Of a stretch of DNA of 64,000 nucleotides, positions 19,750 through 33,161 are shown one piece after another. Made by a program: the position numbers and the translations under genes. Location of the stretch: assembly GCF_017305435.1 (NCBI RefSeq), contig NZ_JAFKIP010000006.1:1-64000 (forward strand), in the 5' to 3' direction. Below the pieces are notes generated by a model, which did no database searches, had not been told where the DNA came from, and worked only from the letters and a program-made list of their open reading frames with translations. Each line of letters opens with the position of its first letter. Positions within the stretch are counted from its first letter, which is position 1. Source of the DNA: Microbacterium sp. (GTDB lineage Bacteria; Actinomycetota; Actinomycetes; Actinomycetales; Microbacteriaceae).

Positions 19750-20370
19750 TCAGAGGACGGCCGCGACGCGCGCGCGGACCGCCGCGGCGAGGTCGTCGGC
19801 GGGGAGCGACGCATCGAGCACGAGGAAGCGCTCCGGCTCGGCGGCGGCGAGGTCGAGGAAGGCCTGACGGACGCGGGCATGGAAGTCCGCCTTCTCGGCC
19901 TCGAGCCGGTCGAACGGCTTGTCGTCCGCGTCGAGACGGGCGCGCGCGGATGCCGGGTCGAGGTCGAGCAGCACCGTGAGGTCGGGGAGCGCGCCGTCCG
20001 TGGCCCACAGCGACAGGTCACGGATCTGTGCGGCATCCAGCACCCGCCCCGCTCCCTGGTAGGCGACCGAGGAATCGAGGTAGCGGTCCTGGATGACGAT
20101 CTCGCCGCGCGCAAGCGCGGGACGCACGAGCGTCGCGACGTGGTGCGCGCGGTCGGCGGCGTAAAGGAGCGCCTCGGCTCGCGGGGCGATGTCGCCGCGA
20201 TGGTGCAGGACAATATCGCGGACGAGGACGCCGACCTCCGTGCCACCGGGCTCGCGCGTGCGGACGACGGTGCGACCCTCGTCTCGCAGCCACCGCTCCA
20301 GGAGCGTCGCCTGCGTCGTCTTGCCGGCGCCGTCGCCGCCCTCGAACGTGATCCAGACGCCGCGCGTCAT
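19750..20370 (-). CDS. tmk: Thymidylate kinase
   Basis: The enzyme phosphorylates dTMP to dTDP. In 206 residues it has the P-loop F-E-G-G-D-G-A-G-K-T-T (~9-19), the R-E-P-G-G-T motif (~39-44) and the D-R-Y-x-x-S-S-x-A-Y-Q-G motif (~95-106), all diagnostic. The start overlaps the topA stop by ATGA. Confidence 0.96.
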   Translation of the reverse strand: MTRGVWITFEGGDGAGKTTQATLLERWLRDEGRTVVRTREPGGTEVGVLVRDIVLHHRGDIAPRAEALLYAADRAHHVATLVRPALARGEIVIQDRYLDSSVAYQGAGRVLDAAQIRDLSLWATDGALPDLTVLLDLDPASARARLDADDKPFDRLEAEKADFHARVRQAFLDLAAAEPERFLVLDASLPADDLAAAVRARVAAVL

Positions 20371-23177
20371 TTCTTGGCGGCGGGCTTGCGCGTCGTGGTC
20401 GTGCGGCGGGTCGTGCGCTTGGGCGCCGGGCCCTTCGCGCGCTTGTCGGCGAGCATCTGCACCGCGACCTCGAACGTGATGTCGTCGGCAGTCTGGCCCT
20501 TGGGGATCGTGACGTTCGTCGTGCCGTCGGTGACGTAGGCGCCGAACCGGCCGTCCTTGATGCGGATGGGCTTGCCGCTCACGGGGTCGGCCTCGAATTC
20601 CTTCAGCGAGGTCGCGGCACGGTTGGCGTACTTCGGCTGCGCGTAGATCTCGAGCGCCTGCTCGATCGTGATGTCGAAGATCTGGTCCTCGCTCTGCAGC
20701 GACCGCGAGTCGGTGCCCTTCTTCAGGTAGGGGCCGTAAGGGCCGTTCTGAGCCGTGATGGGGGCTTCCGTCTCCGGATCCACCCCCACGGTGCGCGGCA
20801 GCGAGAACAGCTTGAGCGCCGTGTCGAGGTCGATCGTCTCGGGCGACATGCTCTTGAACAGCGATGCGCGGCGCGGCTTGGGAGCCTCGACCTTCTTCTT
20901 GGCGACGCGCTTCTTCGGCGCGGTCTCGGCGGCGTCGGCGACGGGTGCCGGCTCCGGCTCGGGCTCGGCCGGGATGACCTCTTCGAGGTACGGCCCGAAG
21001 CGACCGTCCTTCACGACGATGTCGCGCCCCGTCTCGGGGTTCTGCCCGAGCACGCGGTCGCCCGCGATCGGAGCGTCGATGAGCTCGCGCGCCTTCTCGG
21101 GGGTCAGTTCGTCGGGGGCGAGGTCCTCCGGGATGTTGACGATCCGCGACGTCCCCTCCCCCGTCGGCACATCGAGGTACGGCCCGTACCGCCCGAAGCG
21201 GAGCGTCGCGACGTCGCCGATGCGGGTCGCGTTGATCTCACGGGCGTCGATCTCGCCGAGGTTGTCGAGGATGTTGCGCAGGCCCACGTGCGCGTCCGAC
21301 CCGAAGTAGAAGTCCTTCAACCACTCCACCCGCTGCTGCTCGCCTCGCGCGATCGCATCGAGGTCGTCTTCGAGAGCGGCGGTGAAGTCGTAGTCGACGA
21401 GTTCCGTGAAGTGCTGTTCGAGCAGACGCACGACACTGAACGCGAGCCAGCTCGGCACGAGCGCCTGGCCCCGCTTGGTGACGTAGCCGCGGTTCAGGAT
21501 GACGTCGATGATCGACGCGAACGTCGACGGGCGGCCGATGCCCTTCTCCTCGAGCGCCTTCACGAGGCTCGCCTCGGTGTAGCGTGGCTTAGGGCTCGTG
21601 GCGTGGCCCTTCGGCTCGATCTCGCGGAGGTCGAGGACGTCGCCGACGGCCAGCTGAGGCAGCGACTGGTCGTCGGCGCGATCGGCGTCACCGCGCTTCT
21701 CGTCGCGGCCCTCTTCGTACGCCTCGAGGAACCCCTTGAAGGTGTAGACCGTGCCGGACGCGGTGAAGGACGCGACGCGGCCGGCCGCATCGGCTTCGAG
21801 GGTCACGGTCGTGGTCTCGTACTTGGCATCCGACATCTGCGATGCGACGGTGCGCTTCCAGATGAGGTCGTACAGGCGGCTCTCGTCGCGATCGAGGGCG
21901 GATGCCACCGACGCGGGAGTGCGGAAGTGGTCGCCCGACGGGCGGATCGCCTCGTGCGCCTCCTGCGCGTTCTTGCTCTTGTTCGCGTAGCTGCGCGGGT
22001 TCGCCGGCACCGCACGGTCGCCGTAGAGCGAGACCGCCTGCGCGCGTGCGGCGGCGATCGCCTGCGTCGACAGCGACGTCGAATCGGTGCGCATATAGGT
22101 GATGTAGCCCTTCTCGTAGAGACGCTGTGCGACACCCATGGTGTGCTTCGCGCTCATCGAGAGCTTGCGGCCCGCCTCCTGCTGGAGGGTCGAGGTCGTG
22201 AACGGCGCCTTGGGGCTGCGCGTCCCCGGCTTGGCCTCGATCGCGGTGACCGCGACCTCACCGGCCTTCTCGAGAGCGGCGGCGAGATCCCGCGCCTGCG
22301 ATTCGGTGAGGACGACGACGGCCTTCTTGAGCTGGCCGGCGTCGTCGAAGTCCGTGCCGCGGGCCAACGGCGCGCCGTCGAGGCGCGCGAGGCGCGTGGC
22401 GAACCCGGCGGAGGCGTCCGTGGCGGGCACGGCGAGCGCTTCGACGTCCCAGTACTCGGCCGAGACGAACGCGATGCGCTCCCGCTCGCGGTCGACGACA
22501 AGGCGGGTGGCGGCGGACTGCACGCGCCCGGCGGACGTCCCCTGACCGACCTTGCGGCGCGTGACGTCGGAGACATCCCATCCGTAGAGGCGGTCGAGGA
22601 TGCGGCGCGTCTCCTGCGCGTCGACGAGAGCGAGGTCGAGCTCACGCGTGTTGTCGACGGCCGCGCGGATGGCGTCCTTCGTGATCTCGTGGAAGACCAT
22701 GCGGCGCACGGGCACCTTCGGCTTCAGCGCCTCGAGCAGGTGCCACGCGATGGCTTCGCCTTCGCGGTCTTCATCGGTCGCGAGGAGGAGCTCGTCGGCG
22801 CCCTTCAATGCACGCTTGAGTTCGGCGACGGTCTTCTTGCCGCGGTCGCTCTCCACATAGAGAGGGGTGAACCCGTTCTCGATGTCGATCGAGTACTTGC
22901 CGACCGAGGTCTTCTTGAGCTCGGTCGGGATGTCCTTCTTCTCGGCGAGGTCGCGGATGTGGCCAACCGAGCTGAGCACTTCGTAGCCATCGCCCAGGTA
23001 GCCCTGGATCGACTTCATCTTCGTCGGCGACTCGACGATGACGAGCTTCTTGCCCGCGGGCGCGGCCGCCTTCGCGCGGGGCGCCTTGGCTCCGGGTGCC
23101 GTCGTGTCGGCTGCCTTGGTGCCAGGCGCCTTGGCGCCAGCTGCCTTGGTGCCAGCTGCCTTGATACTCGGGGCCAC
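20367..23177 (-). CDS. topA: DNA topoisomerase I (type IA)
   Basis: This 936-residue enzyme relaxes negative supercoils. The Toprim domain (~40-165) has V-E-S-P-T-K and the T-D-E-D-R-E-G-E metal site. The active-site tyrosine is Tyr361 in Y-I-T-Y-M-R-T-D-S. The C-terminal part has several short repeats of the actinobacterial type (D-G-R-F-G-x-Y, N-G-P-Y-G-P-Y) and ends in a lysine/arginine-rich tail. The GTG start at 23177 was chosen for AAAGGA upstream; an ATG at 23222 would add 15 residues and lacks a ribosome site. Residues ~5-40 are a low-complexity Ala-Lys-Gly-Pro stretch before the Toprim domain. It is followed by tmk and holB. Confidence 0.95.
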   Translation of the reverse strand: MAPSIKAAGTKAAGAKAPGTKAADTTAPGAKAPRAKAAAPAGKKLVIVESPTKMKSIQGYLGDGYEVLSSVGHIRDLAEKKDIPTELKKTSVGKYSIDIENGFTPLYVESDRGKKTVAELKRALKGADELLLATDEDREGEAIAWHLLEALKPKVPVRRMVFHEITKDAIRAAVDNTRELDLALVDAQETRRILDRLYGWDVSDVTRRKVGQGTSAGRVQSAATRLVVDRERERIAFVSAEYWDVEALAVPATDASAGFATRLARLDGAPLARGTDFDDAGQLKKAVVVLTESQARDLAAALEKAGEVAVTAIEAKPGTRSPKAPFTTSTLQQEAGRKLSMSAKHTMGVAQRLYEKGYITYMRTDSTSLSTQAIAAARAQAVSLYGDRAVPANPRSYANKSKNAQEAHEAIRPSGDHFRTPASVASALDRDESRLYDLIWKRTVASQMSDAKYETTTVTLEADAAGRVASFTASGTVYTFKGFLEAYEEGRDEKRGDADRADDQSLPQLAVGDVLDLREIEPKGHATSPKPRYTEASLVKALEEKGIGRPSTFASIIDVILNRGYVTKRGQALVPSWLAFSVVRLLEQHFTELVDYDFTAALEDDLDAIARGEQQRVEWLKDFYFGSDAHVGLRNILDNLGEIDAREINATRIGDVATLRFGRYGPYLDVPTGEGTSRIVNIPEDLAPDELTPEKARELIDAPIAGDRVLGQNPETGRDIVVKDGRFGPYLEEVIPAEPEPEPAPVADAAETAPKKRVAKKKVEAPKPRRASLFKSMSPETIDLDTALKLFSLPRTVGVDPETEAPITAQNGPYGPYLKKGTDSRSLQSEDQIFDITIEQALEIYAQPKYANRAATSLKEFEADPVSGKPIRIKDGRFGAYVTDGTTNVTIPKGQTADDITFEVAVQMLADKRAKGPAPKRTTRRTTTTRKPAAKK

Positions 23178-23750
23178 GGGGCGTCCTTTCGTCGATGCAC
23201 ACCATACACACGTGCCGGACATGAAGAGGCTGTGAGGCGCCCGCGGTTCGCTGTGAGCGAGGCGGCCTGAGGTCCGGGGCGCCGCCGTCTTCGTCCGCCG
23301 CCACCGTCGTCTCGCCTCTCACGGCTCCCCGACCGAATGCGGCGGCGCCGCACGCTCCGACAGCGAGCCGGGGCTCCCTGCAGGCGCCGCCAACATCCGT
23401 GTTCTGGTCGACGATCTGTCGCGCGTTGCACTCGTCGACGGCTACCGAGACATCATCGACCACGCAATGCAACTAAAGCCGTACGCGAAGAAGACCGTCC
23501 TGGTGACGATGGACTACGCGATAACGTTCCGTGGAAGACTCTCAGTCTCGACGCGATCACGCTCCGGCACAGCGATATGCCGGCACGACAGCGGTAGCCT
23601 GCGCGCGTCGCCATTTAGTTTCGCGCCAAGAGGCTCCACGTTCATCTCACACTGTTTGAACCGAACGATGTCTCTCTGACACCTGTCGTGCAACACAACC
23701 GTCCGGCGTACTCTTCTCAAGGTGTTGACGGAGCTGCCCTCCGCTCGCTG
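23178..23750. other. Intergenic border region with a possible gene remnant
   Basis: No credible gene with a start codon and ribosome site was found in these ~570 bases. Base composition shifts from GC-rich to more AT-rich at about 23450, so this is the likely left border of the acquired island. One plus-strand frame open from 23257 to 23679 lacks an ATG, GTG or TTG before 23467 and has a short histone-fold-like stretch at about 23425-23535 (see findings). The topA promoter must lie in the right-adjacent part. Confidence 0.4.
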
Positions 23751-24443
23751 TCACTTGCGAGTCCGTTGCTTCGCAGGCCCCGAAACGAAGTCGAGCATGC
23801 GGTGAAGATGCTCATTTGGAACCAGCCCAGGTAGCAGTAGCATCCATGCAGCTCGCACTCGTTCAATGAGGTCTCGGCGTCGAGTATTCACCGCTGACGC
23901 GAGTTGGATCCCTGTGAAGGACGCGACGAAGAACATGCTCAGTTCGGCCACATCTACATCGTCTCGAAGATCTCCTTGCTGCTGCGCAAGTGTGAGAGCC
24001 ATGGTGACCTGATCGCGCCAGACGTCGTAGGCCTGTCGAACGGACCGTTCGGGCAAGCTCGAACGCTCAGTGCTCAGAACCACACCGGCCTGAGCAATGG
24101 GGTCGCTCTTGATCGCCTTCGAGAATCGCAGAGATGCCGAGATCAGCGATTCCAGTGCTGAGCTAGCTGATGCCTCCGCAGTGACGATTCTGCGGACGAG
24201 GTCTTCGTACTCCTCGAGCACCGTCAGAGCCAGCGATTGCCTGGTGGCAAAGTGAAAGTAGAAGGCCCCGTTGGAGACCTGTGTTTCCTTCTGGATCGCG
24301 GCCAGCGTCGCACCCTCGTACCCATTCTTGACGAAAGCCTTCGCGCCGCCACGAATGATCTGCGCACGAGTCTGCAGAGCCCGCTGCTGGCGTTGGGGCG
24401 TTTCAGTTGCCGTCGACACGTTGCCGAGACTACCCGCGGACAT
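23751..24443 (-). CDS. TetR-family regulator, gamma-butyrolactone-receptor-like (ScbR/ArpA type)
   Basis: The protein has 230 residues from ATG 24443; GTG 24419 is an alternative. The N-terminal HTH shows Q-T-R-A-Q-I-I, A-F-V-K-N-G-Y-E-G-A-T, S-N-G-A-F-Y-F-H-F and S-L-A-L-T-V-L (~25-75), the arrangement of butyrolactone receptors rather than generic TetR proteins. The ligand-binding part is full length. It is divergent from a secreted-peptide gene with a palindrome between them, and an AfsA/ScbA homologue lies 6 kb away in the same island. It likely represses the peptide until a butyrolactone accumulates. The ligand is inference. Confidence 0.75.
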   Translation of the reverse strand: MSAGSLGNVSTATETPQRQQRALQTRAQIIRGGAKAFVKNGYEGATLAAIQKETQVSNGAFYFHFATRQSLALTVLEEYEDLVRRIVTAEASASSALESLISASLRFSKAIKSDPIAQAGVVLSTERSSLPERSVRQAYDVWRDQVTMALTLAQQQGDLRDDVDVAELSMFFVASFTGIQLASAVNTRRRDLIERVRAAWMLLLPGLVPNEHLHRMLDFVSGPAKQRTRK

Positions 24444-24551
24444 TCTCAGATTCTCATACCGCTCGAGGATGACGGAGAGAACTACACGTTCGGAGCCATG
24501 ATCCAAAGGCCCACCGAAGGCCTCAGCGCGTCGCGAGGAGAACGGCATACA

Positions 24552-24569
24552 AAACAGAGTGTTCTGTTT
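24552..24569. promoter_or_regulatory. Candidate operator of the ScbR-like regulator
   Basis: AAACAGAG-TG-TTCTGTTT is a near-perfect palindrome: 8-base arms with one mismatch and a 2-base centre. It ends 8 bases before the TTGACA -35 box of the peptide gene and lies 109 bases upstream of the divergent regulator gene. That is the position expected of an autoregulatory TetR operator. Confidence 0.5.
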
Positions 24570-24577
24570 GAATTTCC

Positions 24578-24607
24578 TTGACATGTGCTGAGAGAACCCG
24601 CGACGAT
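24578..24607 (+). promoter_or_regulatory. Promoter of the secreted-peptide gene
   Basis: A perfect TTGACA -35 box at 24578-24583 is followed, 18 bases later, by GACGAT at 24602-24607 as a weak -10. The peptide start codon is at 24655 with GGAG 7 bases before it. This is one of few consensus -35 boxes in the window. Confidence 0.5.
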
Positions 24608-24654
24608 GGCCCTGTGCTCACCATCGAGCACACAAGAACAGATCGGAGTTCACC

Positions 24655-24945
24655 ATGATCAAGACGAAGTACGGCAAGCGAGTGGCGACAGGCGTGCTGG
24701 CGGGTGCACTCGCGCTCGGCGGTGTGTTCGCGGCAACGGCGCCGGCGATGGCCGCAGGTAGCGGCAAGACCGAGGTTTCACTCGTCCGCGCCGAGGCGTG
24801 GACGTGGACCTCGGGCGGTACTCAGGGGCGGTCGTACGCACAGCACGGGTGCGCATCGTCGCTCTCCCAGTGGGGTTCGTCAACGTCGAATGCCTGGGCA
24901 TCCTGTGGGCTGTCCAGCGGCACGGCCTGGTACCAGTTCCGCTGA
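24655..24945 (+). CDS. Small secreted peptide, lactococcin-972-like bacteriocin candidate
   Basis: The 96-residue precursor has a clear signal peptide: K-T-K-Y-G-K-R followed by a hydrophobic core and A-P-A-M-A, cleaved near residue 33. The mature ~62 residues are rich in Gly, Ser, Trp and Ala. They contain T-S-G-G, a S-Y-A-Q-H segment, two cysteines (66, 84) that could form a disulfide, W-A-S-C-G and the ending T-A-W-Y-Q-F-R. This matches the lactococcin 972 family in size, secretion and aromatic C-terminal pattern, though similarity is weak. It sits beside a butyrolactone-type repressor, a two-component system and an ABC module, and a terminator follows. Another secreted antimicrobial or signal peptide is possible. 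Confidence 0.6.
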   Translation: MIKTKYGKRVATGVLAGALALGGVFAATAPAMAAGSGKTEVSLVRAEAWTWTSGGTQGRSYAQHGCASSLSQWGSSTSNAWASCGLSSGTAWYQFR

Positions 24946-24956
24946 TCGTCCCCTCC

Positions 24957-25001
24957 AGAACGGCGTCCTGACTTGCAGCATCGAGGCCAGGACGCCGTTC
25001 T
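24957..25001. terminator. Hairpin terminator after the peptide gene
   Basis: Perfect 14-base arms (AGAACGGCGTCCTG and its complement) flank a 17-base loop and are followed by CGTTTCTC. It lies between the peptide gene and the convergent histidine kinase gene, ending 6 bases from the latter's stop, so it probably serves both strands. Confidence 0.8.
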
Positions 25002-25007
25002 CGTTTC

Positions 25008-26261
25008 TCACAAGGTGATGGTTTCCTCTGTACTCGAGGGCAGCGTGACTTCCACCTCAAGTCCACCGGCGGCTTGAGGGTTCACGCTCACCCATCCGCC
25101 GTGCTGCTGAGCAATGGCCCGCACGATAGAGAGCCCGAGGCCTATGCCCGGATCCCCGGCAGCGGCGTCGTTGTGGCGTGTACGGGCTCCTCTGTTGAAC
25201 GGTTCGACGAGTTTCGCCGCGACGGCTGGGGCGATGATCTCGCCACCGCTGCGTACGAGGAGGACAGCAGCTCCCGGCGTGCTGCGCATACCGGAGACAG
25301 ACAGCTCATATTCGGGGTGCGCGTGAACACGCGTTTGGATCACGATCGGTTCGTTGGCGGCGCCGTGAAGAATCGCGTTGCCGACGAGGTTCTGCACCGC
25401 TTGAGTGATCAATACCTCGTCGCCCAGGATCGTTGCCTCCTCGAGGTCGAGTTCGAACGAGTGCCTGATGAGCCGGACGTCTTCGACGGAGGACGGCATC
25501 CTCTCGAACCGGTCTTCTTCGAACAGCCCGACGACGGCTGATACAACCTCTCGAAGATCCACAACCTCTGCATGATCAGAAGCCACTCGTCTCGCGCGCG
25601 CAAGCTGCAAGAGCGCGGTGAGAATGCTCTCGGCTCGGGAACTGGCGACGAGAGCTCGCGACATCGCAGCTCTCGGAGCGTCAGCGATCTCGTCGTGCAA
25701 CAGAGAGGCTTCGAGCGATGCGCGGATGCCTGCCAGGGGAGTGCGTAGCTCGTGGGAGGCGTTCGCGACGAAGCTGTCCTGCTGTTCGAACGCAGCATGA
25801 AGTCTGCTCAACATCTCGTCGATGGTGTCGCCGAGGTCTTTGATCTCGTCTTTCGGGCCGGCGAGATCCAGACGCTGGTCGAGGTTCTGCTCGGTGATCG
25901 CTCGCGTCAATGCGGTGACCCCGGCGATGCGGCCGAGGGACTTGCGCGCGACGAACCATACCGCGATGCCGGCGAGCAGAACCATGACTGCCGCCGTGAC
26001 GATCGAGAGCAGCATCACGGTGTCGGCAAGGTCTTTGGCGACACGGAACACGATGGTCTTGCCGTCGAGGTCTCCGGGGTTCTCGCCCTGCGACGAGCTG
26101 CCGGTGGTGGCCTCGACGCTCACTTCGACTACGTACTGCAGCAGGAAGTACTCCGCGACCAGCAGGATCGCCGCTGCCAGCGCGAAGGCAGCCGTGGACA
26201 GCACCGTGAGTCGAAGCGCGAGGGAACGGCGGCGCGGATGCGCAGTCTCAGGCGACGTCAT
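25008..26261 (-). CDS. Two-component sensor histidine kinase
   Basis: This 417-residue kinase is anchored by two membrane helices (~15-42 and ~80-105) that flank a small extracellular loop of ~38 residues. A HAMP linker follows (~105-158), then the HisKA box N-A-S-H-E-L-R-T-P with phospho-acceptor His170. The ATPase domain has the N-box Q-N-L-V-G-N-A, a divergent G1 region and G-I-G-L-G-L-S-I. The start overlaps the response regulator stop by ATGA. The short sensor loop and the adjacent ABC module suggest a peptide- or envelope-sensing kinase of the type that controls bacteriocin resistance exporters. Confidence 0.9.
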   Translation of the reverse strand: MTSPETAHPRRRSLALRLTVLSTAAFALAAAILLVAEYFLLQYVVEVSVEATTGSSSQGENPGDLDGKTIVFRVAKDLADTVMLLSIVTAAVMVLLAGIAVWFVARKSLGRIAGVTALTRAITEQNLDQRLDLAGPKDEIKDLGDTIDEMLSRLHAAFEQQDSFVANASHELRTPLAGIRASLEASLLHDEIADAPRAAMSRALVASSRAESILTALLQLARARRVASDHAEVVDLREVVSAVVGLFEEDRFERMPSSVEDVRLIRHSFELDLEEATILGDEVLITQAVQNLVGNAILHGAANEPIVIQTRVHAHPEYELSVSGMRSTPGAAVLLVRSGGEIIAPAVAAKLVEPFNRGARTRHNDAAAGDPGIGLGLSIVRAIAQQHGGWVSVNPQAAGGLEVEVTLPSSTEETITL

Positions 26262-26917
26262 GGCTGTCCTATCCGGTAGCCGTGACCCTGCTCGTACTCG
26301 ATCAGATCGCGGCCGAGCTTCTTGCGTAGCGAATGCATCAGGACTCTCACGACGCTGCCGGTCACGGTGTCTGGGGTGTCCCAGGCGATATCTAGCAGTT
26401 GATCCGAACGCAGTGGAGCACCATCGGCACGTAGCAGCGCTTCGAGCACTTCGAACTCCTTCGGCGAGAGCCTCACAGGTTCGTCCTCGAGATACGCGCG
26501 ACGACGAACGGTGTCTGCACGGAGACGCCCCCGTTCGATGATTGGTGCATTGACGACACGGGCGCGGGGTCCGAGAGCGCGGATTCGCGCGACCAATTCG
26601 ACGAACGCGAACGGCTTGGTGAGGTAGTCGTCGGCACCGAGGTCCAGGCCGTCGACACGGTCCATCACCGAAGCGGCCGCGGTGAGCATCAGGATTCGGG
26701 TGTCGTCGTTGTACTCGCGCAGGCTCTTGCAGACGGTGTCTCCGGAGATGCCCGGGAGATCCCGATCGAGCACGAGCACATCGATATCGATCTCGCCCAG
26801 GCGCTCCAATGCCGTGCGTCCCTCGCGGGCCAGATCGACGGTGAAGCCCTCCGCGGCCAGTCCGTCCCGGAGGGTATCGCCGAGCACCGGATCGTCTTCG
26901 ACGACCATCACTCTCAT
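26258..26917 (-). CDS. OmpR-family response regulator
   Basis: The protein has 219 residues. The receiver domain has the acidic pair in V-V-E-D-D, phospho-acceptor Asp51 (V-L-V-L-D) and the conserved Lys101 (L-T-K-P-F). The C-terminal winged helix has L-S-P-K-E-F-E-V-L-E-A-L-L and ends in the G-H-G-Y-R-I strand. ATG 26917 follows GGAGG. It is cotranscribed with the kinase and divergent from the lipoprotein/ABC operon, its likely target. Confidence 0.93.
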   Translation of the reverse strand: MRVMVVEDDPVLGDTLRDGLAAEGFTVDLAREGRTALERLGEIDIDVLVLDRDLPGISGDTVCKSLREYNDDTRILMLTAAASVMDRVDGLDLGADDYLTKPFAFVELVARIRALGPRARVVNAPIIERGRLRADTVRRRAYLEDEPVRLSPKEFEVLEALLRADGAPLRSDQLLDIAWDTPDTVTGSVVRVLMHSLRKKLGRDLIEYEQGHGYRIGQP

Positions 26918-26932
26918 CGCGCCTCCTCGCTC

Positions 26933-27012
26933 CGTTGATGGTTCAACGTTGATACATGTGTCTCCACTCTGTCAGCCGGAGCGTTAGCGCTGCGTGAGGT
27001 TCGCAGTAACGC
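26933..27012. promoter_or_regulatory. Repeats in the divergent regulator/ABC-module promoter region
   Basis: Two direct CGTTGAT repeats start 14 bases apart (26933 and 26947). An inverted pair, GCGTTA (26981-26986) and TAACGC (27007-27012), has further complementary bases inside. OmpR-type regulators often bind direct repeats, so the first pair is the better candidate for the adjacent regulator. The region serves both the response-regulator gene (start 26917) and the lipoprotein gene (start 27077). Confidence 0.4.
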
Positions 27013-27076
27013 GACGCTGATCGCGTCCTCCATAGAACGGATTGCAAGCCAAACAGGACCGACGGATGGAGACACG

Positions 27077-27721
27077 ATGAGCAAGCAGAGAATCGCGATC
27101 GGTATTGCTGCGTTCGCCACGGCGGCGTTGCTGCTGACAGGTTGCACCACGACGACTCAGGGCACCTACGAGGGCTCCAGCAACCAGACGACTGCCAAGT
27201 TGGCGGGGAGCCTCACCGAGTTGTTCCAGCAGGCTCTCGACGGCGAGAAGAACCCCTTCGTCATCGAAGTGCTGAACCGGGCGATCGCGACGGGCAAGAT
27301 CTCCCAGGCCGACTACGACGAGGCTCATCGTCTCTACCGGGTGTGCATGTCGGACGCCGGCTACGAGGAGACCTACACGCAGCTGGCGAACGGCAGCTAC
27401 CAGATCACACCGCCGCGTTTGGATGGTGACTCCGCGGTTGAGAAGTACATGGACGTGGGCACGGAGTGCTCAGCGGAACTGGCGCCTATCGAGGCGCTGT
27501 TCATCACCCAGCAGGGCAACCCCGATCTCATCGTCGATCAGGAACAGCTCGCCGTGCAGTGCCTCAATAAAGCAGGGCTCGTCGACGCGAGCTACACGGC
27601 GAGCAACTTCCGCTCTGATCTGGACAACGCGTTCAAGGACGCAACCTTCGACCCGATGTCATCGGAAGCGCAGACGTGCTTCAGCAACGCCGGCTACACG
27701 ATCACGGTTGGGAAGCAGTGA
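27077..27721 (+). CDS. Lipoprotein of the island ABC module
   Basis: This 214-residue protein starts at ATG 27077 behind GGAG. The signal peptide ends in lipobox L-T-G-C with Cys23. The mature part has no recognised domain. It holds four further cysteines (in R-V-C-M-S-D-A-G-Y, T-E-C-S, V-Q-C-L and Q-T-C-F-S-N-A-G-Y) and two C-x-x-x-(A)-G-Y-like half-repeats, suggesting internal duplication. It is the first gene of an operon with an adaptor, ATPase and permease, and its stop overlaps the next start (GTGA). It may bind the exported peptide or act in immunity. Confidence 0.75.
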   Translation: MSKQRIAIGIAAFATAALLLTGCTTTTQGTYEGSSNQTTAKLAGSLTELFQQALDGEKNPFVIEVLNRAIATGKISQADYDEAHRLYRVCMSDAGYEETYTQLANGSYQITPPRLDGDSAVEKYMDVGTECSAELAPIEALFITQQGNPDLIVDQEQLAVQCLNKAGLVDASYTASNFRSDLDNAFKDATFDPMSSEAQTCFSNAGYTITVGKQ

Positions 27722-28779
27722 CCCGCCGGTCCGTCGCGCTCACGGTGGTGTGTGTCGTGACCTTGGTCGGCGTCGCCCTCCTCACGGGGATCTACCTGAG
27801 ACCAGCCAGTGCGCCCGAAGCCCTCCAGAGCAGTGCGCCGACGCTGTCCGCCCCGGTGACGGCGCGAGAGTTCTCGGACAGCCGGAAGGTGCAGGTCAGG
27901 CTGGTCCCCGGCCCCGATGTCTCGGTGACGGCGAACACGTCGGGAGTGGTCACGGCAACAGCATGCACGATCGGTGGAACCCTGAGTTCAGGCACGGTCG
28001 CGGCGCGTGTCAACGATGCCCCCCTGCTCGCGCTGCATCTGAGCGTGCCGCCCTTCCGAGACTTCGAGTCCTCTACGCGCGGCGCCGACGTTGCAGCCCT
28101 CCAGAGCGAGCTGCAGCGTCTGGGCTATCCCGTAGACGCCGACGGGTACTTCGACTGGGCCACGGCGATGGCTGTCCGTGATCTGCGCGCGGCAGCGGGC
28201 ATGCCCAAGAGCACGACACTCGCCCTGTCGGAGATCGTCTGGATCCCCGAGGAACAGCTAGCCACCAGCACCTGCAACGCGAGCCTCGGCGCTCAGGTCT
28301 CTCCAGGAACGGCGCTTGCTACCAAGTCCGGGTCTCTCCAACAGGTCGTGATGGACAGTGCGCCAACGGATCTCGTCGCCGGCGACCGCACCCTCACCGT
28401 GTTCGGCGTGACGGGAAACCTTCCCGCGGGAGCGACCTCGATCACCGACCACGGAGTTCTCGACGCGGTGGAAGCCACCCAAGATGCTCAGACGGTGCTG
28501 GCCGGAGACCCGTCGACGCAAGTACCCGCCACCCTCGCGCTGACGGCGAGCGTCGACGCGCTCCAAGTGCCAGCCTCAGCCGTGTTCGGAATCGCGAACA
28601 GCGACGCGGACGGAACCCACCGCGGCTGCCTGCAATCGGGGACGGTCTCGTATCCCGTGATCGTGCTCGGGTCCTCGCTCGGGGCGTCGCTGGTCGCGAT
28701 AGAGCCGCACCGCGATATGAACCCTCCGACGGAGGTGAACCTTGGTGCTGCGATCACGGCGACCAGCTGCGAAAACTAA
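27718..28779 (+). CDS. Peptidoglycan-binding, HlyD-like adaptor protein
   Basis: The protein has 353 residues from GTG 27718. One membrane helix (~6-27) is followed by an extracellular region. A lipoyl-like beta segment (~66-100) precedes a peptidoglycan-binding domain at ~120-165 (R-G-A-D-V-A-A-L-Q, L-G-Y-P-V-D-A-D-G-Y-F-D). Beta-rich segments follow, as in MacA-type adaptors where a coiled-coil hairpin would normally sit. Such adaptors link MacB-like ABC exporters to the wall in Gram-positive actinobacteria. It is coupled to both neighbours by overlaps. Confidence 0.75.
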   Translation: MTRRSVALTVVCVVTLVGVALLTGIYLRPASAPEALQSSAPTLSAPVTAREFSDSRKVQVRLVPGPDVSVTANTSGVVTATACTIGGTLSSGTVAARVNDAPLLALHLSVPPFRDFESSTRGADVAALQSELQRLGYPVDADGYFDWATAMAVRDLRAAAGMPKSTTLALSEIVWIPEEQLATSTCNASLGAQVSPGTALATKSGSLQQVVMDSAPTDLVAGDRTLTVFGVTGNLPAGATSITDHGVLDAVEATQDAQTVLAGDPSTQVPATLALTASVDALQVPASAVFGIANSDADGTHRGCLQSGTVSYPVIVLGSSLGASLVAIEPHRDMNPPTEVNLGAAITATSCEN

Positions 28780-29485
28780 GGAACTCCGCGGCCGCGCAGA
28801 TGCAGAGATCCGAGCGGAGGGGCTCGGCCACGCCTTCCGCGGCGGCCCGCTGTTGTTCGAGAACGTGAGCTTCCGGTTCCGCAGAGGCGACGTGGTCGCG
28901 ATCTGCGGCCCCTCCGGCAGCGGGAAGTCCACGCTGCTGTCGATCCTCGCCGGATGGGAAAAACCCGTGGAAGGTCAGATCGACAAGCCTGGTATCCGCA
29001 CCACCGGATGGGTCTTCCAGAATCCTCACGGCGTCGCTCACCGCACGGCGCTGGACCACGTGGCGTTCCCGCTGCTGGCCCAAGGGAGCTCCCGCAGAGA
29101 CGCCAGCGACAGGGCGAGGGATGTGCTCAGCGGATTCGGACTGGAAAACACCGCCGAACGGCCGTTTCACGCGCTCTCCGGGGGCGAAGCCCAACGTCTG
29201 ATGCTGGCCCGAGCCGTGTGCATCGCACCCGATCTGCTCCTCGTCGACGAACCCACCGCGCAGCTGGACCAGACCACCGCCCGCACGGTGAACGCCACCC
29301 TGAGGCACGTCGCAGACGGAGGCTCGATCGTCCTCGTCGCCACCCACGACCAAGGAACGAGAGATGCCTGCACCTACACGGTGGATCTCGCAGCGCACCC
29401 GCTGACGGAGCGCACCTCAGTGGTCTCAAACTTGGAAGGCGGCAAAGATGAGAGCAACAGCGATCCTCTCCGAAGCGGCGCGTAA
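28745..29485 (+). CDS. ABC transporter ATP-binding protein (MacB/LolD type)
   Basis: This 246-residue ATPase has Walker A at ~55-63 (G-P-S-G-S-G-K-S-T), Q-loop V-F-Q-N-P, signature A-L-S-G-G-E-A-Q-R, Walker B L-L-L-V-D-E-P-T and the H-loop T-H-D-Q. It belongs to the exporter-type MacB/FtsE/LolD group. The start is TTG 28742 or GTG 28745, both behind GGAGG; GTG was chosen as the commoner start. Both ends overlap neighbours by about 35 bases, so the operon is tightly coupled. Confidence 0.88.
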   Translation: MLRSRRPAAKTKELRGRADAEIRAEGLGHAFRGGPLLFENVSFRFRRGDVVAICGPSGSGKSTLLSILAGWEKPVEGQIDKPGIRTTGWVFQNPHGVAHRTALDHVAFPLLAQGSSRRDASDRARDVLSGFGLENTAERPFHALSGGEAQRLMLARAVCIAPDLLLVDEPTAQLDQTTARTVNATLRHVADGGSIVLVATHDQGTRDACTYTVDLAAHPLTERTSVVSNLEGGKDESNSDPLRSGA

Positions 29486-30539
29486 CCTGATCTCCGGCAC
29501 GAGCCGAGCTGTGACCTTCTCGCTGCTGCTGAGCGCGATCCTCGCCGGACTCGTGCTCGCAGATGCCCTCGCCATCCACGGCCTCGAAACCCGCGCGGAA
29601 ACGTTCCGAGCATCGGGGGCATCGACTCGCGTTCTGCAGCTGCAAGGCTCGATCTCCGGCGCCGCCTGCGACCACCTCACGGGCTCCGGATCCATCGAGG
29701 CTTCTGGTGCGCTCGTCGCCGACGCAGCCGTGCAGTTCAGCGCGCTGCCGACGACCACCGTGCCCGCCTTCAGCGTCACCCCCGGCCTCATCGCGCTCCT
29801 CGCCGATGCACCCATCCGTCGGGAGGGGGCCTGGGTATCGAAGACTCTCGCCACAACGCTGGCCGTCGCCGCTGGAGACACATTGGCGACGTCGGATGGC
29901 CCCCTCGCGATCGCAGGGACCTATCGCTACCCCGACGACGGCCGCGATAGCCGACTGGCCTATGCCGTGCTCCTTCCGGTACCGACGGGCACTGGCTCAT
30001 TCGACGAGTGCTGGGCTTCGGCGTGGCCGCTGAGCGACGACACGGACGTACTGCTGAGATCCTCTGCATTTGCCACCGGATCCACGGATCCGCTGCAGAT
30101 CGCTCAGTTGAATAGGGCCCAAGGGTCGAGCTTCGACGCACAGCGAGAGTTCGAGAGCCGCATCACCCGCTTCGCGTCTCCGCTTGCCGCAGGAGTCTCG
30201 TTCGGCCTCGGTTGGGTGAGCGTCAGACTTCGGCGTCTGGAACACGCTGCGGCCCTGCACGCCGGCCAGAGCCGCAGTGGGCTCGTGCTCGGCATCACAC
30301 TCGAAACAGCTGCGTGGGCTCTGCTGGGCGCAGTGCTTGCAGGTGCGATCTCGCTGGGAGCTTTCGGCGCCCTCGCTACCGCGTCGTCCGCCAGCGACCT
30401 AAGCCAGCTGAGAACACTAATCCCCATCGTCGCTCCCGCGCTGCCTGCCGCAGGAGGAGCCGCCCTGATCGGTGCCGCTCTGGCCGGCATCGCCACTCGC
30501 GAGAAACACCTCTTCCGGTACTTCAAGGAGCGAACATGA
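29448..30539 (+). CDS. ABC transporter permease, FtsX/MacB-like
   Basis: This 363-residue protein has the MacB-type layout: an N-terminal helix (~20-42), a large extracellular domain (~45-235) with a cysteine pair (in A-A-C-D and D-E-C-W), then three C-terminal helices (~242-258, ~278-305, ~325-350). GGAAGGCGG precedes ATG 29448 inside the ATPase gene. The stop overlaps the ScbA start by ATGA, so the butyrolactone synthase is part of the same transcript. With the adaptor, ATPase and lipoprotein it forms a probable peptide export or immunity pump. Confidence 0.8.
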   Translation: MRATAILSEAARNLISGTSRAVTFSLLLSAILAGLVLADALAIHGLETRAETFRASGASTRVLQLQGSISGAACDHLTGSGSIEASGALVADAAVQFSALPTTTVPAFSVTPGLIALLADAPIRREGAWVSKTLATTLAVAAGDTLATSDGPLAIAGTYRYPDDGRDSRLAYAVLLPVPTGTGSFDECWASAWPLSDDTDVLLRSSAFATGSTDPLQIAQLNRAQGSSFDAQREFESRITRFASPLAAGVSFGLGWVSVRLRRLEHAAALHAGQSRSGLVLGITLETAAWALLGAVLAGAISLGAFGALATASSASDLSQLRTLIPIVAPALPAAGGAALIGAALAGIATREKHLFRYFKERT

Positions 30540-31441
30540 CATCGACCCCGCTGTCCACGAATCGAACGGTCCCCATCACACCCACCCCGATGGCAACCTG
30601 GATCGATGTACCTCAGGCAGCGATACACAAGCGGTCTCTCAGCGAGATCCTGGTGACGAGATTTCGTCGCGAAGAGGATCTCTGTCGCTTCGTTGTCCGT
30701 ATCCTCCGTCGGCACACGATGTGGTCAGCGGAGAGGGACGAATTGCCGCTCATCATCGCAGTGGAAGCTCTCCGCCAGGTAGGACTCGCGCTCGGCCACC
30801 TCGGAGGAAACGTGCCGCTCGAATGGGCTTTCATTCTGAACGAAACGTCGTTTTCGTGGACGACGAGCGCGCCGGTGTGGACAGGCGGTGACGATCTCAC
30901 GCTGGAGGTCTCGTGCAACGTCGAGTCTTCCAGAGAACACCACGGTGTGCTCGTCGAACTGGTCGCGAAGACGGATTTCTGGCTCGGCGACCAACTGATC
31001 GGGACTGGTCACGGCCACATCAACTGTCTGCCTCCCCGCGCATACCGGCTCATTCGACGCGCCGCCGTCGCCACATCGAACGCTGCTATGGCTCCAGGAA
31101 CCGCGCTCTTACACGACAGATCGAACGATGACGTCCAGCTACGAGCGACTCTAGGCTGGGAGTATCCGCATCCGTTCTTCTACGACCACGACGCGGATCA
31201 TGTTCCGGGCATGCTGCTGGCAGAAGCAGCCATCGCAGCTCACATGGCTCTGAACGGTGTCCAGCCCGGATCGATATCCCTGGTCTGTTCGAAGTTCGCC
31301 GAGTTCGGCTCCGATGTGTCACTGCTGACCAACAAAGGGGCACTCACCAGCACGGAGTTCACACAGTCTGGTGCGCCCATCGCACGGGCAAGAACCGGGA
31401 GCCCCATGGGACGGGGCGGCTCCCCCGTCATTGCACGATGA
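30536..31441 (+). CDS. AfsA/ScbA-type gamma-butyrolactone biosynthesis protein
   Basis: AfsA-family enzymes condense a beta-ketoacyl donor with dihydroxyacetone phosphate, the key step to gamma-butyrolactone signals. The 301-residue protein has the two family hot-dog repeats. The first has V-H/I-H-K-R-S-L-S-E-I-L and later E-A-L-R-Q-V-G. The second has F-F-Y-D-H-D-A-D-H-V-P-G-M-L-L-A-E-A, the strongest signature. The start is coupled to the ABC permease by ATGA. An ScbR-like receptor lies at the other end of the island. The C-terminal ~30 residues are Gly/Ala/Arg-rich and may be variable. Confidence 0.85.
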   Translation: MTSTPLSTNRTVPITPTPMATWIDVPQAAIHKRSLSEILVTRFRREEDLCRFVVRILRRHTMWSAERDELPLIIAVEALRQVGLALGHLGGNVPLEWAFILNETSFSWTTSAPVWTGGDDLTLEVSCNVESSREHHGVLVELVAKTDFWLGDQLIGTGHGHINCLPPRAYRLIRRAAVATSNAAMAPGTALLHDRSNDDVQLRATLGWEYPHPFFYDHDADHVPGMLLAEAAIAAHMALNGVQPGSISLVCSKFAEFGSDVSLLTNKGALTSTEFTQSGAPIARARTGSPMGRGGSPVIAR

Positions 31442-31455
31442 CCGCGAGCCTCTGC

Positions 31456-32385
31456 TCACAACTCGATCGATGCGCGGAGAGCCGAGACATACCAGCCGAT
31501 ATCGGACGCAGAGAGTTCTGGAGTCTGCGCGAGCTGCGGGTAACGCGACAGCAGCCTCCGCGCATCGAACCAGTTGTCCTGCGCTACCATCGCTAGCTGC
31601 GACCGAGAGATGCCGTACTGATCGGCAACTCGACGAAGATGATCTCCACTCAGTGTTTGCGTCGGCAGCGCACACCCCGCGCTGCGCAGCACAGGCTCAA
31701 TCAGACCCCGCAGACGCACTGGTTCAGGTCCGCCGCTGTGGAACACCGCGCCGCGTGGACAATCCTCGTCCATGCCCAACAGCGCGAGGGCATCCCCCAC
31801 CTGTGCGGCGTTGGCGACCGAAACGCGGGACTCCCCACCCTCGATCCAAGCGTTGAACCGGACCGTCGCAGCCAGCACCGACAGCAGGAACCATCGATCG
31901 CCGGCGCCGACAACCGCATGAGGACGAACGACGACACCACCCGCACGCAGCACCGCCTGTTCGGCGGCGCGTCTCGACGCACTCAACGAAGAGCCGGGTG
32001 CTACCAGAAGTTCGTCTTCGGTGCCGCCGGCGATGCCGCCGCCATACACCGCAGATGTACTGAGATAGACGATCCTCTCGACACCAGCATGCTCGGCAGC
32101 TTCGACCAGATGGGCTGTACCTGTGATGTTCACACGCTCTTGCAATCGCTCATCGTCGCCGATGTAACTCGCACAATGCACGAGGACGCGAGCACCCTGC
32201 AGAAGCTCCGAAAATCCATCGCCGGTACCAAGATCTCCCTTGATGACGTCTACGGAACTCTCAGTGGATGCCGACCGATGCTGAAGAGCCACGACATCGG
32301 CGTTCTTCGCGAGGAGCGCACGCACAGCTCGGCTACCTATGAAACCGGTCGCGCCAGTCACTGCGACACGGGACCCGGCCGTCAT
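31456..32385 (-). CDS. NAD-dependent epimerase/dehydratase family, butyrolactone-cluster type
   Basis: The protein has 309 residues from ATG 32385; TTG 32400 is an alternative. The Rossmann motif V-T-G-A-T-G-F-I-G is at ~8-16 and L-S-T-S-A-V-Y-G near 113-120. At the usual Y-x-x-x-K position it reads S-L-S-A-S-R-R-A-A-E, so the catalytic Tyr and Lys are absent. Later motifs (G-G-V-V-V-R-P-H, G-A-G-D-R-W-F) match proteins found, as I recall, beside AfsA homologues. It is convergent with the ScbA gene, 14 bases apart. It probably acts in butyrolactone synthesis, perhaps by a different chemistry or as a binding protein. Confidence 0.75.
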   Translation of the reverse strand: MTAGSRVAVTGATGFIGSRAVRALLAKNADVVALQHRSASTESSVDVIKGDLGTGDGFSELLQGARVLVHCASYIGDDERLQERVNITGTAHLVEAAEHAGVERIVYLSTSAVYGGGIAGGTEDELLVAPGSSLSASRRAAEQAVLRAGGVVVRPHAVVGAGDRWFLLSVLAATVRFNAWIEGGESRVSVANAAQVGDALALLGMDEDCPRGAVFHSGGPEPVRLRGLIEPVLRSAGCALPTQTLSGDHLRRVADQYGISRSQLAMVAQDNWFDARRLLSRYPQLAQTPELSASDIGWYVSALRASIEL

Positions 32386-32521
32386 CTGCGAGCCGGGCAA
32401 TCAACGAAGGTCGTCATCGACACAGCCTGGCATCGTTTGTCCCTGGTAAACCGAGCACGGCACAGAAAAGCCTCAAGTTGATCCATCGTCGCTGGAGTAG
32501 ATTGCACTCGCTTGCGTGGAC

Positions 32522-32697
32522 TCACGTCGGGTCGTCGTGAGGTGCGTTGTGCAGGGCTTTGATCTGATACGCCCGGAGGCTGTCCGCGTCGCAGGCGGGA
32601 TCGTTTCGCCAGCGGTAGTAGGGCTGGCGGGCGAGCTTGAGGACCCGGCACGACACCGTCACGGAATCCTCGCTTCGGCGAGCTCACGGTGAACTAG
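32522..32697 (-). pseudogene. IS3-family transposase OrfB remnant
   Basis: The minus strand reads H-R-E-L-A-E-A-R-I-P, then after a one-base deletion at about 32662 T-V-S-C-R-V-L-K-L-A-R-Q-P-Y-Y-R-W and further to H-D-D-P-T before a stop at 32522. This is the start of an IS3-family OrfB, in which functional copies read I-P-V-x-V-x-C-R-V-L. It is both frameshifted and truncated. It marks the right border of the acquired island, next to the tad genes. Confidence 0.7.
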
Positions 32698-32825
32698 GAA
32701 GCGTGTTCTCTCACGGAGATGTCGGCGCACTCAGGGCTGTCGCCGAGTTCGCGGCGCCGTGACGTCCGCCGGCGCCGCCGCTTCGTCCCGCCCCGACGAC
32801 GTGTCCCCTCGCTCCCCCGACTGTC

Positions 32826-33161
32826 TCAAGGCTCCCCGACCGGATGCGGCGGCGGGCCCGCACGCGCACGCCCGCGCGCGGCGAACGGGCCCGCCCCCAC
32901 CTCGACCTGGACGGTCGCGACCAGCCCGTCGAGGTCGCACGAGACGAGTCGTGCCCCTGCCGCCCCTGCGACCTGCGCGGCGGCGTCGCAGGGAATGCCG
33001 TCGAGCGCGCCGCTCGTCGTGTCCGCCGCGGCGAGCGCGGCGGCATCCGCGGCACCTGCAGCGTGCGCCGAACGCACCGCCGCCGCTGACGCGGCGCCGA
33101 TGCCCACCGCGAGGGTCGCCGAGACGGCGAGCACACCGACCGCCGCGGCGACGCCGGCCAT
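32826..33161 (-). CDS. TadE-like secretion-neighbourhood protein
   Basis: This 111-residue protein starts at ATG 33161, overlapping the upstream stop by one base (TGATG). A hydrophobic helix at ~2-30 precedes an alanine-rich, Tad-like segment with A-A-L-A-A-A-D and two cysteines (in I-P-C-D-A and V-S-C-D-L). It matches the small TadE-like protein at the end of the actinobacterial helicase/secretion neighbourhood. The tail is Ala/Arg/Pro-rich. It is the last gene of the tad operon. Confidence 0.75.
   Translation of the reverse strand: MAGVAAAVGVLAVSATLAVGIGAASAAAVRSAHAAGAADAAALAAADTTSGALDGIPCDAAAQVAGAAGARLVSCDLDGLVATVQVEVGAGPFAARGRARAGPPPHPVGEP

What the first reader, a model, noticed from the sequence alone, without database searches (positions are those of the whole stretch)
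23751..32385. Butyrolactone-signalling and bacteriocin island
One AT-richer block carries a butyrolactone-receptor-like TetR regulator, a small secreted lactococcin-972-like peptide behind a TetR-type palindrome, a two-component system, a lipoprotein/adaptor/ATPase/permease module, an AfsA/ScbA synthase coupled by ATGA to that module, and the epimerase type found with ScbA. Seen: the genes, overlaps and palindrome. Known: AfsA makes butyrolactones and ScbR-like proteins sense them. Inferred: the signal controls production of the peptide, while the kinase pair controls export or immunity. Putting a bacteriocin under butyrolactone quorum control in a Microbacteriaceae genome would be new to my knowledge.
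Basis: partly seen in the sequence, partly recalled or inferred. Interest (0 to 1): 0.85.

Follow-up and report, generated by a model that had tools for sequence, protein, structure and literature searches.

The report
Hormone-gated bacteriocin cassette in Microbacteriaceae
A DNA cassette inserted in an actinobacterium carries genes for a small secreted, possibly antibacterial peptide beside genes that look able to make and sense a hormone-like signal, and similar peptide-plus-signal cassettes recur in some related species, which suggests that these bacteria may use the signal to decide when to attack rivals.

Summary
The genes are real, on an insertion of up to 9.7 kb absent from 8 of 8 same-genus relatives compared. 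The TetR passes the curated ScbR (butyrolactone-receptor) model; the synthase has two AfsA domains but misses the stricter ScbA/BarX cut-off. The peptide is not lactococcin 972 by Pfam; it belongs to a small unnamed family. The association recurs: peptide, two-component pair and lipoprotein/adaptor/ATPase/permease block occur with AfsA in G058 (peptide truncated) and with another synthase, AvrD, in G244 and M. arborescens. Further modules, two with true lactococcin-972 genes (G137, G128), also lie beside AfsA or AvrD, above chance. Yet 14 of 19 complete modules found in the genus lack a nearby synthase: the signal is an add-on. A 7-4-7 palindrome precedes the peptide in three signalling loci but not in signal-less Leucobacter; a direct repeat of 11-bp period marks the kinase-linked promoter in six loci. 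Best reading: ScbR represses the peptide; the kinase pair drives the ABC (immunity) operon, which here includes AfsA. Regulation, signal chemistry and killing are untested.

The parts
23213..32896 (.). Outer bounds of the insertion between a topA-like gene and TadE-like genes (names by eye)
   Evidence: in 8 of 8 same-genus relatives the flanking genes are adjacent; blastn matches (E 0.001) to theirs end at 23212 and resume at 32897 at the earliest
23751..24443 (-). ScbR/ArpA-type TetR regulator, 230 aa from the likelier ATG
   Evidence: NCBIfam NF041196 167.5 bits over cut-off 150; AvaR1 6.5e-27, CprB 4.2e-23 in PDB; Trp shared with solved receptors
24552..24569 (.). Operator-like palindrome AAACAGA-N4-TCTGTTT
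   Evidence: unique in the window; same 7-4-7 layout about 90 bp before the peptide in L011 and L016
24578..24607 (+). Possible promoter TTGACA-18-GACGAT of the peptide gene
   Evidence: by eye; not tested
24655..24945 (+). Secreted 96-aa peptide, Sec-type leader by eye, two Cys in the mature part; small unnamed family
   Evidence: homologues in G244, M. arborescens, Leucobacter, remnant in G058; no Pfam/NCBIfam family
25008..26261 (-). Sensor histidine kinase
   Evidence: HAMP, HisKA, HATPase_c
26258..26917 (-). OmpR-type response regulator
   Evidence: Response_reg, Trans_reg_C
26982..26998 (+). Direct repeat CGTTAG-N5-CGTGAG, candidate response-regulator site
   Evidence: one copy in each of 6 kinase-bearing loci, from which the pattern was written; none in 17 other module loci
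27077..27721 (+). Lipoprotein
   Evidence: conserved family A1/A6; lipobox by eye; no Pfam family
27718..28779 (+). Peptidoglycan-binding membrane adaptor
   Evidence: PG_binding_1 34.4 bits
28742..29485 (+). ABC ATPase
   Evidence: ABC_tran 100.9 bits
29448..30539 (+). ABC permease
   Evidence: conserved with G058 57%, G244 41%; no Pfam family
30536..31441 (+). AfsA-type signal synthase, coupled by ATGA to the permease
   Evidence: PF03756 two stretches 81.1 bits; same ATGA coupling in G058
31456..32385 (-). NAD-dependent epimerase/dehydratase (SDR)
   Evidence: PF01370 84.3 bits; homologues beside AfsA in G058 and G025 and in the G244 and M. arborescens loci

Best explanation
The insertion is a signal-gated antibacterial-peptide cassette with two circuits. 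Circuit 1: the ScbR-type repressor holds the peptide promoter through the palindrome at 24552-24569; a butyrolactone-like signal made by AfsA, perhaps finished by the SDR, releases it, so the peptide is secreted (Sec) at high density. Circuit 2: the kinase senses the peptide or the cell-wall damage it causes, and the response regulator acts at the direct repeat at 26982-26998 to raise the lipoprotein/adaptor/ATPase/permease operon, which confers immunity. As AfsA is the last gene of that operon, immunity and signal would rise together before the peptide is released. Shown: genes, families, operon overlap, recurrence, distribution of the two motifs. Inferred: signal chemistry, repression, immunity, killing, order of events.
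For: ScbR-family regulator and AfsA domains. G058 has the same order, peptide remnant-HK-RR-lipoprotein-adaptor-ATPase-permease-AfsA-SDR, with AfsA at 40% identity, and the ATGA coupling. G244 and M. arborescens have peptide, kinase pair, module, TetR and SDR, with AvrD (PF05655) as the synthase. Genus-wide, 5 of 35 synthase genes (my count) lie within 10 kb of a module lipoprotein hit, 0.016-0.04 expected. Leaving out the loci that seeded the profiles: 2 near cases for 27 lipoprotein hits (0.014 expected); 4 of 29 adaptor hits near a synthase (0.23 expected, P about 1e-4); and both lactococcin-972 loci found in 29 genomes searched, 26 of them synthase-bearing. On the adaptor tree (31 rows) AfsA needs 5 label changes and AvrD 4, so linkage was gained or lost repeatedly. 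Palindrome present in window, L011, L016, absent in Leucobacter L014. Direct repeat once in each of 6 kinase-bearing loci (0-0.05 expected each), 0 of 17 other module loci. The L011/L016 blastn alignment (76.5% over 6.5 kb) begins at the palindrome's first base. G058 lost the peptide's start but kept ABC, kinase pair and AfsA, as an immunity role predicts.
Against: No experiment. 14 of 19 complete modules found by the lipoprotein search in the genus have no synthase in the fetched stretch, and 23 of 33 synthase regions have no adaptor hit (some regions cut short by contig ends). Leucobacter and Ruania have the kinase pair and module with no AfsA or AvrD found in their genomes (in one search no control rang either), so the signal is dispensable for the module. 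6 of 9 synthase-linked peptide upstream regions tested gave no convincing palindrome (one of them, L109, with a wrong start coordinate), while 1 of 8 unlinked ones, L111, gave a GC-rich one. AfsA misses the ScbA/BarX cut-off. The peptide has no known antibacterial homologue, and its predicted structure is unusable (mean pLDDT 46). The direct-repeat pattern was written from the 6 loci that it then matched. In G244 and M. arborescens the synthase is not in the ABC operon, so the proposed joint rise of immunity and signal is not general. Ruania shows no peptide in the 1 kb read beside its kinase gene.
Confidence: 0.56

Rival explanations
1. Neighbours by accumulation: a competition island collected an ordinary bacteriocin-type module and an unrelated butyrolactone system, which regulates itself or other genes. 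The palindrome is the autoregulatory site of the TetR only.
For: Most complete modules found in the genus lack a nearby synthase (14 of 19) and most synthase regions lack an adaptor hit (23 of 33). In the window one site could serve the divergent tetR promoter.
Against: Co-location above chance after leaving out seed loci. In G244 and M. arborescens the TetR gene lies beyond the permease, yet the palindrome is at the peptide promoter. AfsA is coupled to the permease in two diverged loci.
Confidence: 0.25
2. The peptide is not an antibacterial but a secreted pheromone or surface factor, read by the histidine kinase; the cassette is a double-signal system.
For: Peptide (or its remnant) and kinase pair go together in window, G058, G244, M. 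arborescens and Leucobacter; the peptide fits no bacteriocin family.
Against: Modules of the same kind carry true lactococcin-972 genes in G137 and G128, and many modules have no adjacent homologous kinase pair. Ruania has the kinase pair with no peptide seen beside it. Lactococcin 972 itself sets off a two-component system in its target (PMC9964109, passages).
Confidence: 0.15
3. AfsA here makes no diffusible signal but a lipid product of its own, or is inactive.
For: Below the ScbA/BarX cut-off (146.6 of 200); an AvrD-like enzyme, MmyD, is proposed to act early in making an antibiotic rather than a hormone (PMC12593393, passages).
Against: Two AfsA stretches over the Pfam cut-off in an open frame; an ScbR-family receptor gene in the same cassette.
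Confidence: 0.15

Closest known systems
Streptomyces ScbA/ScbR (AfsA/ArpA) gamma-butyrolactone systems
   Same: AfsA-domain synthase, ScbR-family receptor, palindromic operator-like site at a target promoter
   Different: Target appears to be a ribosomally made secreted peptide with an ABC/kinase module rather than a small-molecule cluster; AfsA is joined to the ABC operon; synthase below the ScbA/BarX equivalog cut-off
Lactococcin 972 bacteriocins (PF09683)
   Same: True PF09683 peptides take the same place, before lipoprotein/adaptor/ATPase/permease genes, in G137 and G128 beside AfsA/AvrD
   Different: The window peptide fails PF09683; a two-component pair is added here
AvrD/MmyD enzymes (PF05655)
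   Same: An AvrD gene is the synthase-type gene of the G244 and M. arborescens loci
   Different: A Pfam family other than AfsA; in the passages read it is tied to syringolide and methylenomycin biosynthesis (PMC12593393), not to bacteriocins
Methylenomycin mmf/mmy cluster
   Same: Hormone genes (mmfL, mmfP, mmfH) and an AvrD-like enzyme tied to an antibacterial product (PMC12593393 passages); its ScbR-like repressor MmfR is recalled
   Different: Product is a small molecule, not a peptide

Membership tests
ScbR/ArpA autoregulator receptors | Curated family score | tested here: met
   NF041196 167.5 bits, cut-off 150
ScbR/ArpA autoregulator receptors | Trp in the ligand domain shared with solved receptors (its ligand role is recalled) | tested here: met
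   aligned with AvaR1, 6srn, CprB and 5xaz; kept in 9 of 9 TetRs aligned, read by eye
ScbR/ArpA autoregulator receptors | Binds DNA and releases it with a butyrolactone-type ligand | not testable with these tools
   needs gel shift
AfsA/ScbA butyrolactone synthases | Two AfsA hotdog domains | tested here: met
   PF03756 two stretches, 81.1 bits, cut-off 24
AfsA/ScbA butyrolactone synthases | ScbA/BarX equivalog score | tested here: not met
   NF041195 146.6 bits, cut-off 200; G058 124.1 and G025 158.1 also miss it
AfsA/ScbA butyrolactone synthases | Makes a butyrolactone | not testable with these tools
   needs chemistry
Lactococcin 972 | PF09683 domain | tested here: not met
   no hit for the window peptide, G244 peptide or G058 remnant, nor anywhere in the window's genome; hhalign to true members aligns only the leader
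Lactococcin 972 | Neighbouring ABC genes of the lactococcin-972 type | tested here: inconclusive
   ATPase scores 122.9 on TIGR03608 L_ocin_972_ABC, cut-off 254.85; homologous adaptor/ATPase/permease genes lie beside true PF09683 peptides
Lactococcin 972 | Antibacterial activity | not testable with these tools
   needs assay
OmpR-type two-component system | HisKA/HATPase_c kinase and Response_reg/Trans_reg_C regulator | tested here: met
Quorum-sensing control of this peptide | Receptor operator at the peptide promoter | tested here: inconclusive
   palindrome present and goes with TetR among homologous peptides, but few cases, no such site in 6 of 9 linked upstream regions and no binding data

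The most novel reading that the evidence does not exclude
In Microbacterium and kin there is a recurring class of exchangeable 'signal-gated bacteriocin' cassettes. Different peptide families (this one, lactococcin 972, others) and different signal synthases (AfsA or AvrD) are swapped on one immunity chassis. In this window the kinase pair drives immunity and signal synthesis in one operon, so sensing of a rival's attack would be broadcast as a butyrolactone that arms the whole population.
Probability: 0.35. Interest if true: 0.77.

Novelty: new variant of a known kind. Interest (0 to 1): 0.62.

Why it matters
Butyrolactone hormones are known mainly as switches for small-molecule antibiotics in Streptomyces (general knowledge; PMC6930871 passages). 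A 2016 review states that for Microbacterium there is no evidence of quorum sensing, 'not even bioinformatic' (PMC4748050, passages). Cassettes that pair such signals with ribosomal antibacterial peptides, with enzymes of two Pfam families (AfsA, AvrD) in the synthase role, would extend this signalling to another product class and give a short, genetically simple system in which signal, receptor, operator, target and immunity can be tested together. They also give a search handle: small secreted ORFs beside AfsA or AvrD plus the adaptor module are candidate bacteriocins that family models miss.

Tried and rejected
Lactococcin-972 membership of the peptide was tested and rejected. Structure prediction of the peptide gave mean pLDDT 46, so no fold search was made. 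PDB sequence search found no relative of the peptide family at E 10 or of AfsA at E 1. Three weak peptide hits were dropped before the count of peptide loci: G219 (35% over 63 residues; its frames read show no secreted peptide by eye) and G476, G623 of another genus (E 4.8e-6 and 6.3e-5, profile positions 3-54 and 3-47 only, mostly leader; not looked at further). The figure '8 of 9 adaptors over 200 bits lie near a synthase' is circular, because those 8 seeded the profile, and is not used. My first adaptor count took only the 16 non-seed hits over 78 bits, a cut chosen afterwards; the full count is 4 of 29. A histone-like stretch at the left flank noticed by eye had no Pfam hit and was dropped. 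An IS3-type fragment seen by eye at 32525-32683(-) had no Pfam hit. A set of neighbour proteins of L014, L015 and L017 was never scanned (one search failed). Literature, ten searches: gamma-butyrolactone+Microbacterium+AfsA 2 papers, passages of 1; lactococcin 972+actinobacteria+two-component+ABC transporter 4, passages of 1; AvrD+syringolide+butyrolactone 1, passages; gamma-butyrolactone+bacteriocin+TetR+quorum sensing+AfsA 0; AvrD+AfsA+Streptomyces 0; lactococcin 972+Microbacterium 4, passages of 1; butyrolactone+ScbR+bacteriocin 7, passages of 2; at least 4 of ScbA/AfsA/fatty acid synthase/site-directed/Arg243 0; at least 3 of AvrD/hormone/TetR/AfsA-like 53, 8 listed, passages of 1; AfsA+bacteriocin 83, 15 listed. 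No paper was read whole. Nothing listed or seen in passages describes butyrolactone control of a bacteriocin; the library is open-access only and the last two lists were cut.
Full report
WHAT IS THERE. The window is the start of contig C4 of a 3.5-Mb genome. Between a topA-like gene (20367-23222, -) and TadE-like genes (names by eye, no family search) lies an insertion of at most 9.7 kb. GC of its 1-kb steps is 0.615-0.675, against about 0.70 for most of the window, though other stretches (7-8 kb, 60-64 kb) are as low. In 8 of 8 same-genus relatives whose topA region was fetched, the flanking genes are neighbours; blastn matches end at 23212 and resume at 32897 at the earliest. A 31-nt repeat (94%) lies at both ends, 23317-23347 and 32824-32854. 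The genus is most likely Microbacterium: inference, from the size of the genus group (366 genomes held) and from the block shared by the same-genus genome G244 and the named record of M. arborescens (76.5% over 6.5 kb).

THE GENES. TetR: ScbR equivalog 167.5 bits over cut-off 150; best PDB relatives AvaR1, 6srn, CprB, a gamma-butyrolactone receptor, with the shared Trp. Peptide, 96 aa, Sec-type leader by eye, no family. Kinase and OmpR-type regulator; lipoprotein, PG-binding adaptor, ABC ATPase, permease; AfsA with two stretches (81.1 bits over 24) but 146.6 bits on the ScbA/BarX model, cut-off 200; SDR. AfsA overlaps the permease by ATGA.

RECURRENCE OF THE BLOCK. Over 247 genus genomes, own included, AfsA homologues at E 1e-10 occur in 3 and peptide homologues at E 0.001 in 4. 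G058 has both, in the window's order, but its peptide gene keeps only the C-terminal half and no TetR hit was found in the 15.5 kb fetched. G244 has peptide, kinase pair, module, TetR and SDR, and AvrD (PF05655, 115.3 bits) beside the TetR. In the genomes of the last three no AfsA was found (0 of 3, no control rang) and AvrD in 1 of 3 (Arthrobacter, on another contig).

GENUS-WIDE ASSOCIATION. Of 366 genomes, 24 have the lipoprotein (30 places), 12 have AfsA (19 genes by my count, one short) and 16 have AvrD (16 genes). Six genomes have lipoprotein and a synthase; in five a synthase lies 2.3-5.1 kb away (G000, G058, G125, G137, G244), in one (G220) 327 kb away; 0.016-0.04 synthases within 10 kb were expected. 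With local adaptor profiles, 10 of 33 synthase regions carry an adaptor hit: 6 strong (three of them, window, G058, G244, seeded the profile) and 4 weak. Leaving out seeds: 2 near cases for 27 lipoprotein hits (0.014 expected); 4 of 29 adaptor hits (0.23 expected); both lactococcin-972 loci (3 genes, G137 and G128) that PF09683 finds in 29 genomes, 26 of them synthase-bearing. Against this, 14 of 19 complete modules found by the lipoprotein search have no synthase in the fetched stretch. On the adaptor tree (31 rows over 55 bits, some on long branches) the labels AfsA, AvrD, none need 9 changes, minimum 2; AfsA alone 5, AvrD alone 4, and the supported clade of six that holds the window contains AfsA, AvrD and synthase-free loci. 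So synthases were gained, lost or exchanged repeatedly on one chassis.

DIFFERENT PEPTIDES ON ONE CHASSIS. In G137 and G128 the peptide before the lipoprotein is true lactococcin 972 (30.2, 53.4 and 36.8 bits, cut-off 22); in G128 two such modules point away from a central AvrD-TetR pair. In G125 (synthase-linked) and G009, G318, G170 (not linked) it is another unnamed family. Profile comparison of the window family with the lactococcin-972 set aligns only the leader.

REGULATORY SITES. The window palindrome AAACAGA-N4-TCTGTTT is perfect and unique at up to 3 mismatches. About 90 bp before the peptide, L011 and L016 have ACATACA-N4-TGTATGT; Leucobacter, with no TetR hit in its locus, has no such site. 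In L011 and L016 the TetR gene lies beyond the permease, so the site goes with the peptide promoter rather than with tetR. The blastn alignment of L011 and L016 begins at the palindrome's first base. Across 17 peptide upstream regions, base shuffling gave few equals for these three (8, 10 and 0 of 200) and for one unlinked locus (L111, GC-rich, 3 of 200); the other 6 linked regions gave none convincing (best 31 of 200; L109 tested with a wrong start). Between regulator and lipoprotein, all six kinase-bearing loci have SGTTAR-N5-SGTNAG, a direct repeat of 11-bp period as OmpR-type regulators often use (recalled); it occurs once in each locus (0-0.05 expected) and in 0 of 17 module loci without an adjacent homologous kinase pair (L110 has one about 7 kb away). 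The pattern was written from those six, so the controls, not the 6 of 6, carry the weight.

MECHANISM. Circuit 1, ScbR-type repression of the peptide lifted by an AfsA-made signal; circuit 2, kinase-driven immunity operon that here ends in AfsA. Immunity rather than export is preferred because the peptide has its own Sec-type leader and because G058 keeps the ABC genes after losing the peptide's start. Lactococcin 972 triggers the two-component system CesSR in its target (PMC9964109, passages), a precedent for envelope sensing. AfsA in the ABC operon of the window and G058 implies that signal and immunity rise together; in the AvrD loci the synthase is not in that operon, so this wiring is not general. 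All regulatory steps are inference.

KNOWN OR NEW. Each part is of a known kind. In passages I read, AfsA-like proteins are said to be in most actinomycetes (PMC6930871), but a 2016 review reports no quorum-sensing evidence for Microbacterium (PMC4748050). My ten literature searches (listed under tried and rejected) showed no report of a butyrolactone-gated bacteriocin among the titles and passages seen; this is limited to open-access papers and to cut lists. I rate it a new variant of a known kind.

Noticed in passing
G293 (same genus): One genome holds seven AfsA places on four contigs (one frame short, 178 aa), all six fetched regions with a TetR gene near by; 354 of 366 genus genomes have no AfsA match.
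   Followed up: partly
L130 (G128:C16:1-14000): AvrD and a TetR are flanked on both sides by divergent lactococcin-972 + lipoprotein + ABC modules.
   Followed up: partly
window 23317-23347 and 32824-32854: 31-nt repeat, 94% identical, at both ends of the insertion; possible trace of how it came in.
   Followed up: no
window 32525-32683 (-): Short reading frame that by eye resembles the start of an IS3-type transposase OrfB; no Pfam hit.
   Followed up: partly
L010:10165-10308 (G058): Peptide gene cut off at its 5' end by unrelated sequence while the genes from kinase pair to AfsA and SDR are open frames: looks like an immune non-producer.
   Followed up: partly
L123 (G087:C24:174500-194400): AfsA and TetR follow a divergent pair of adaptor/ATPase modules, each with its own unnamed secreted small peptide candidate.
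   Followed up: partly
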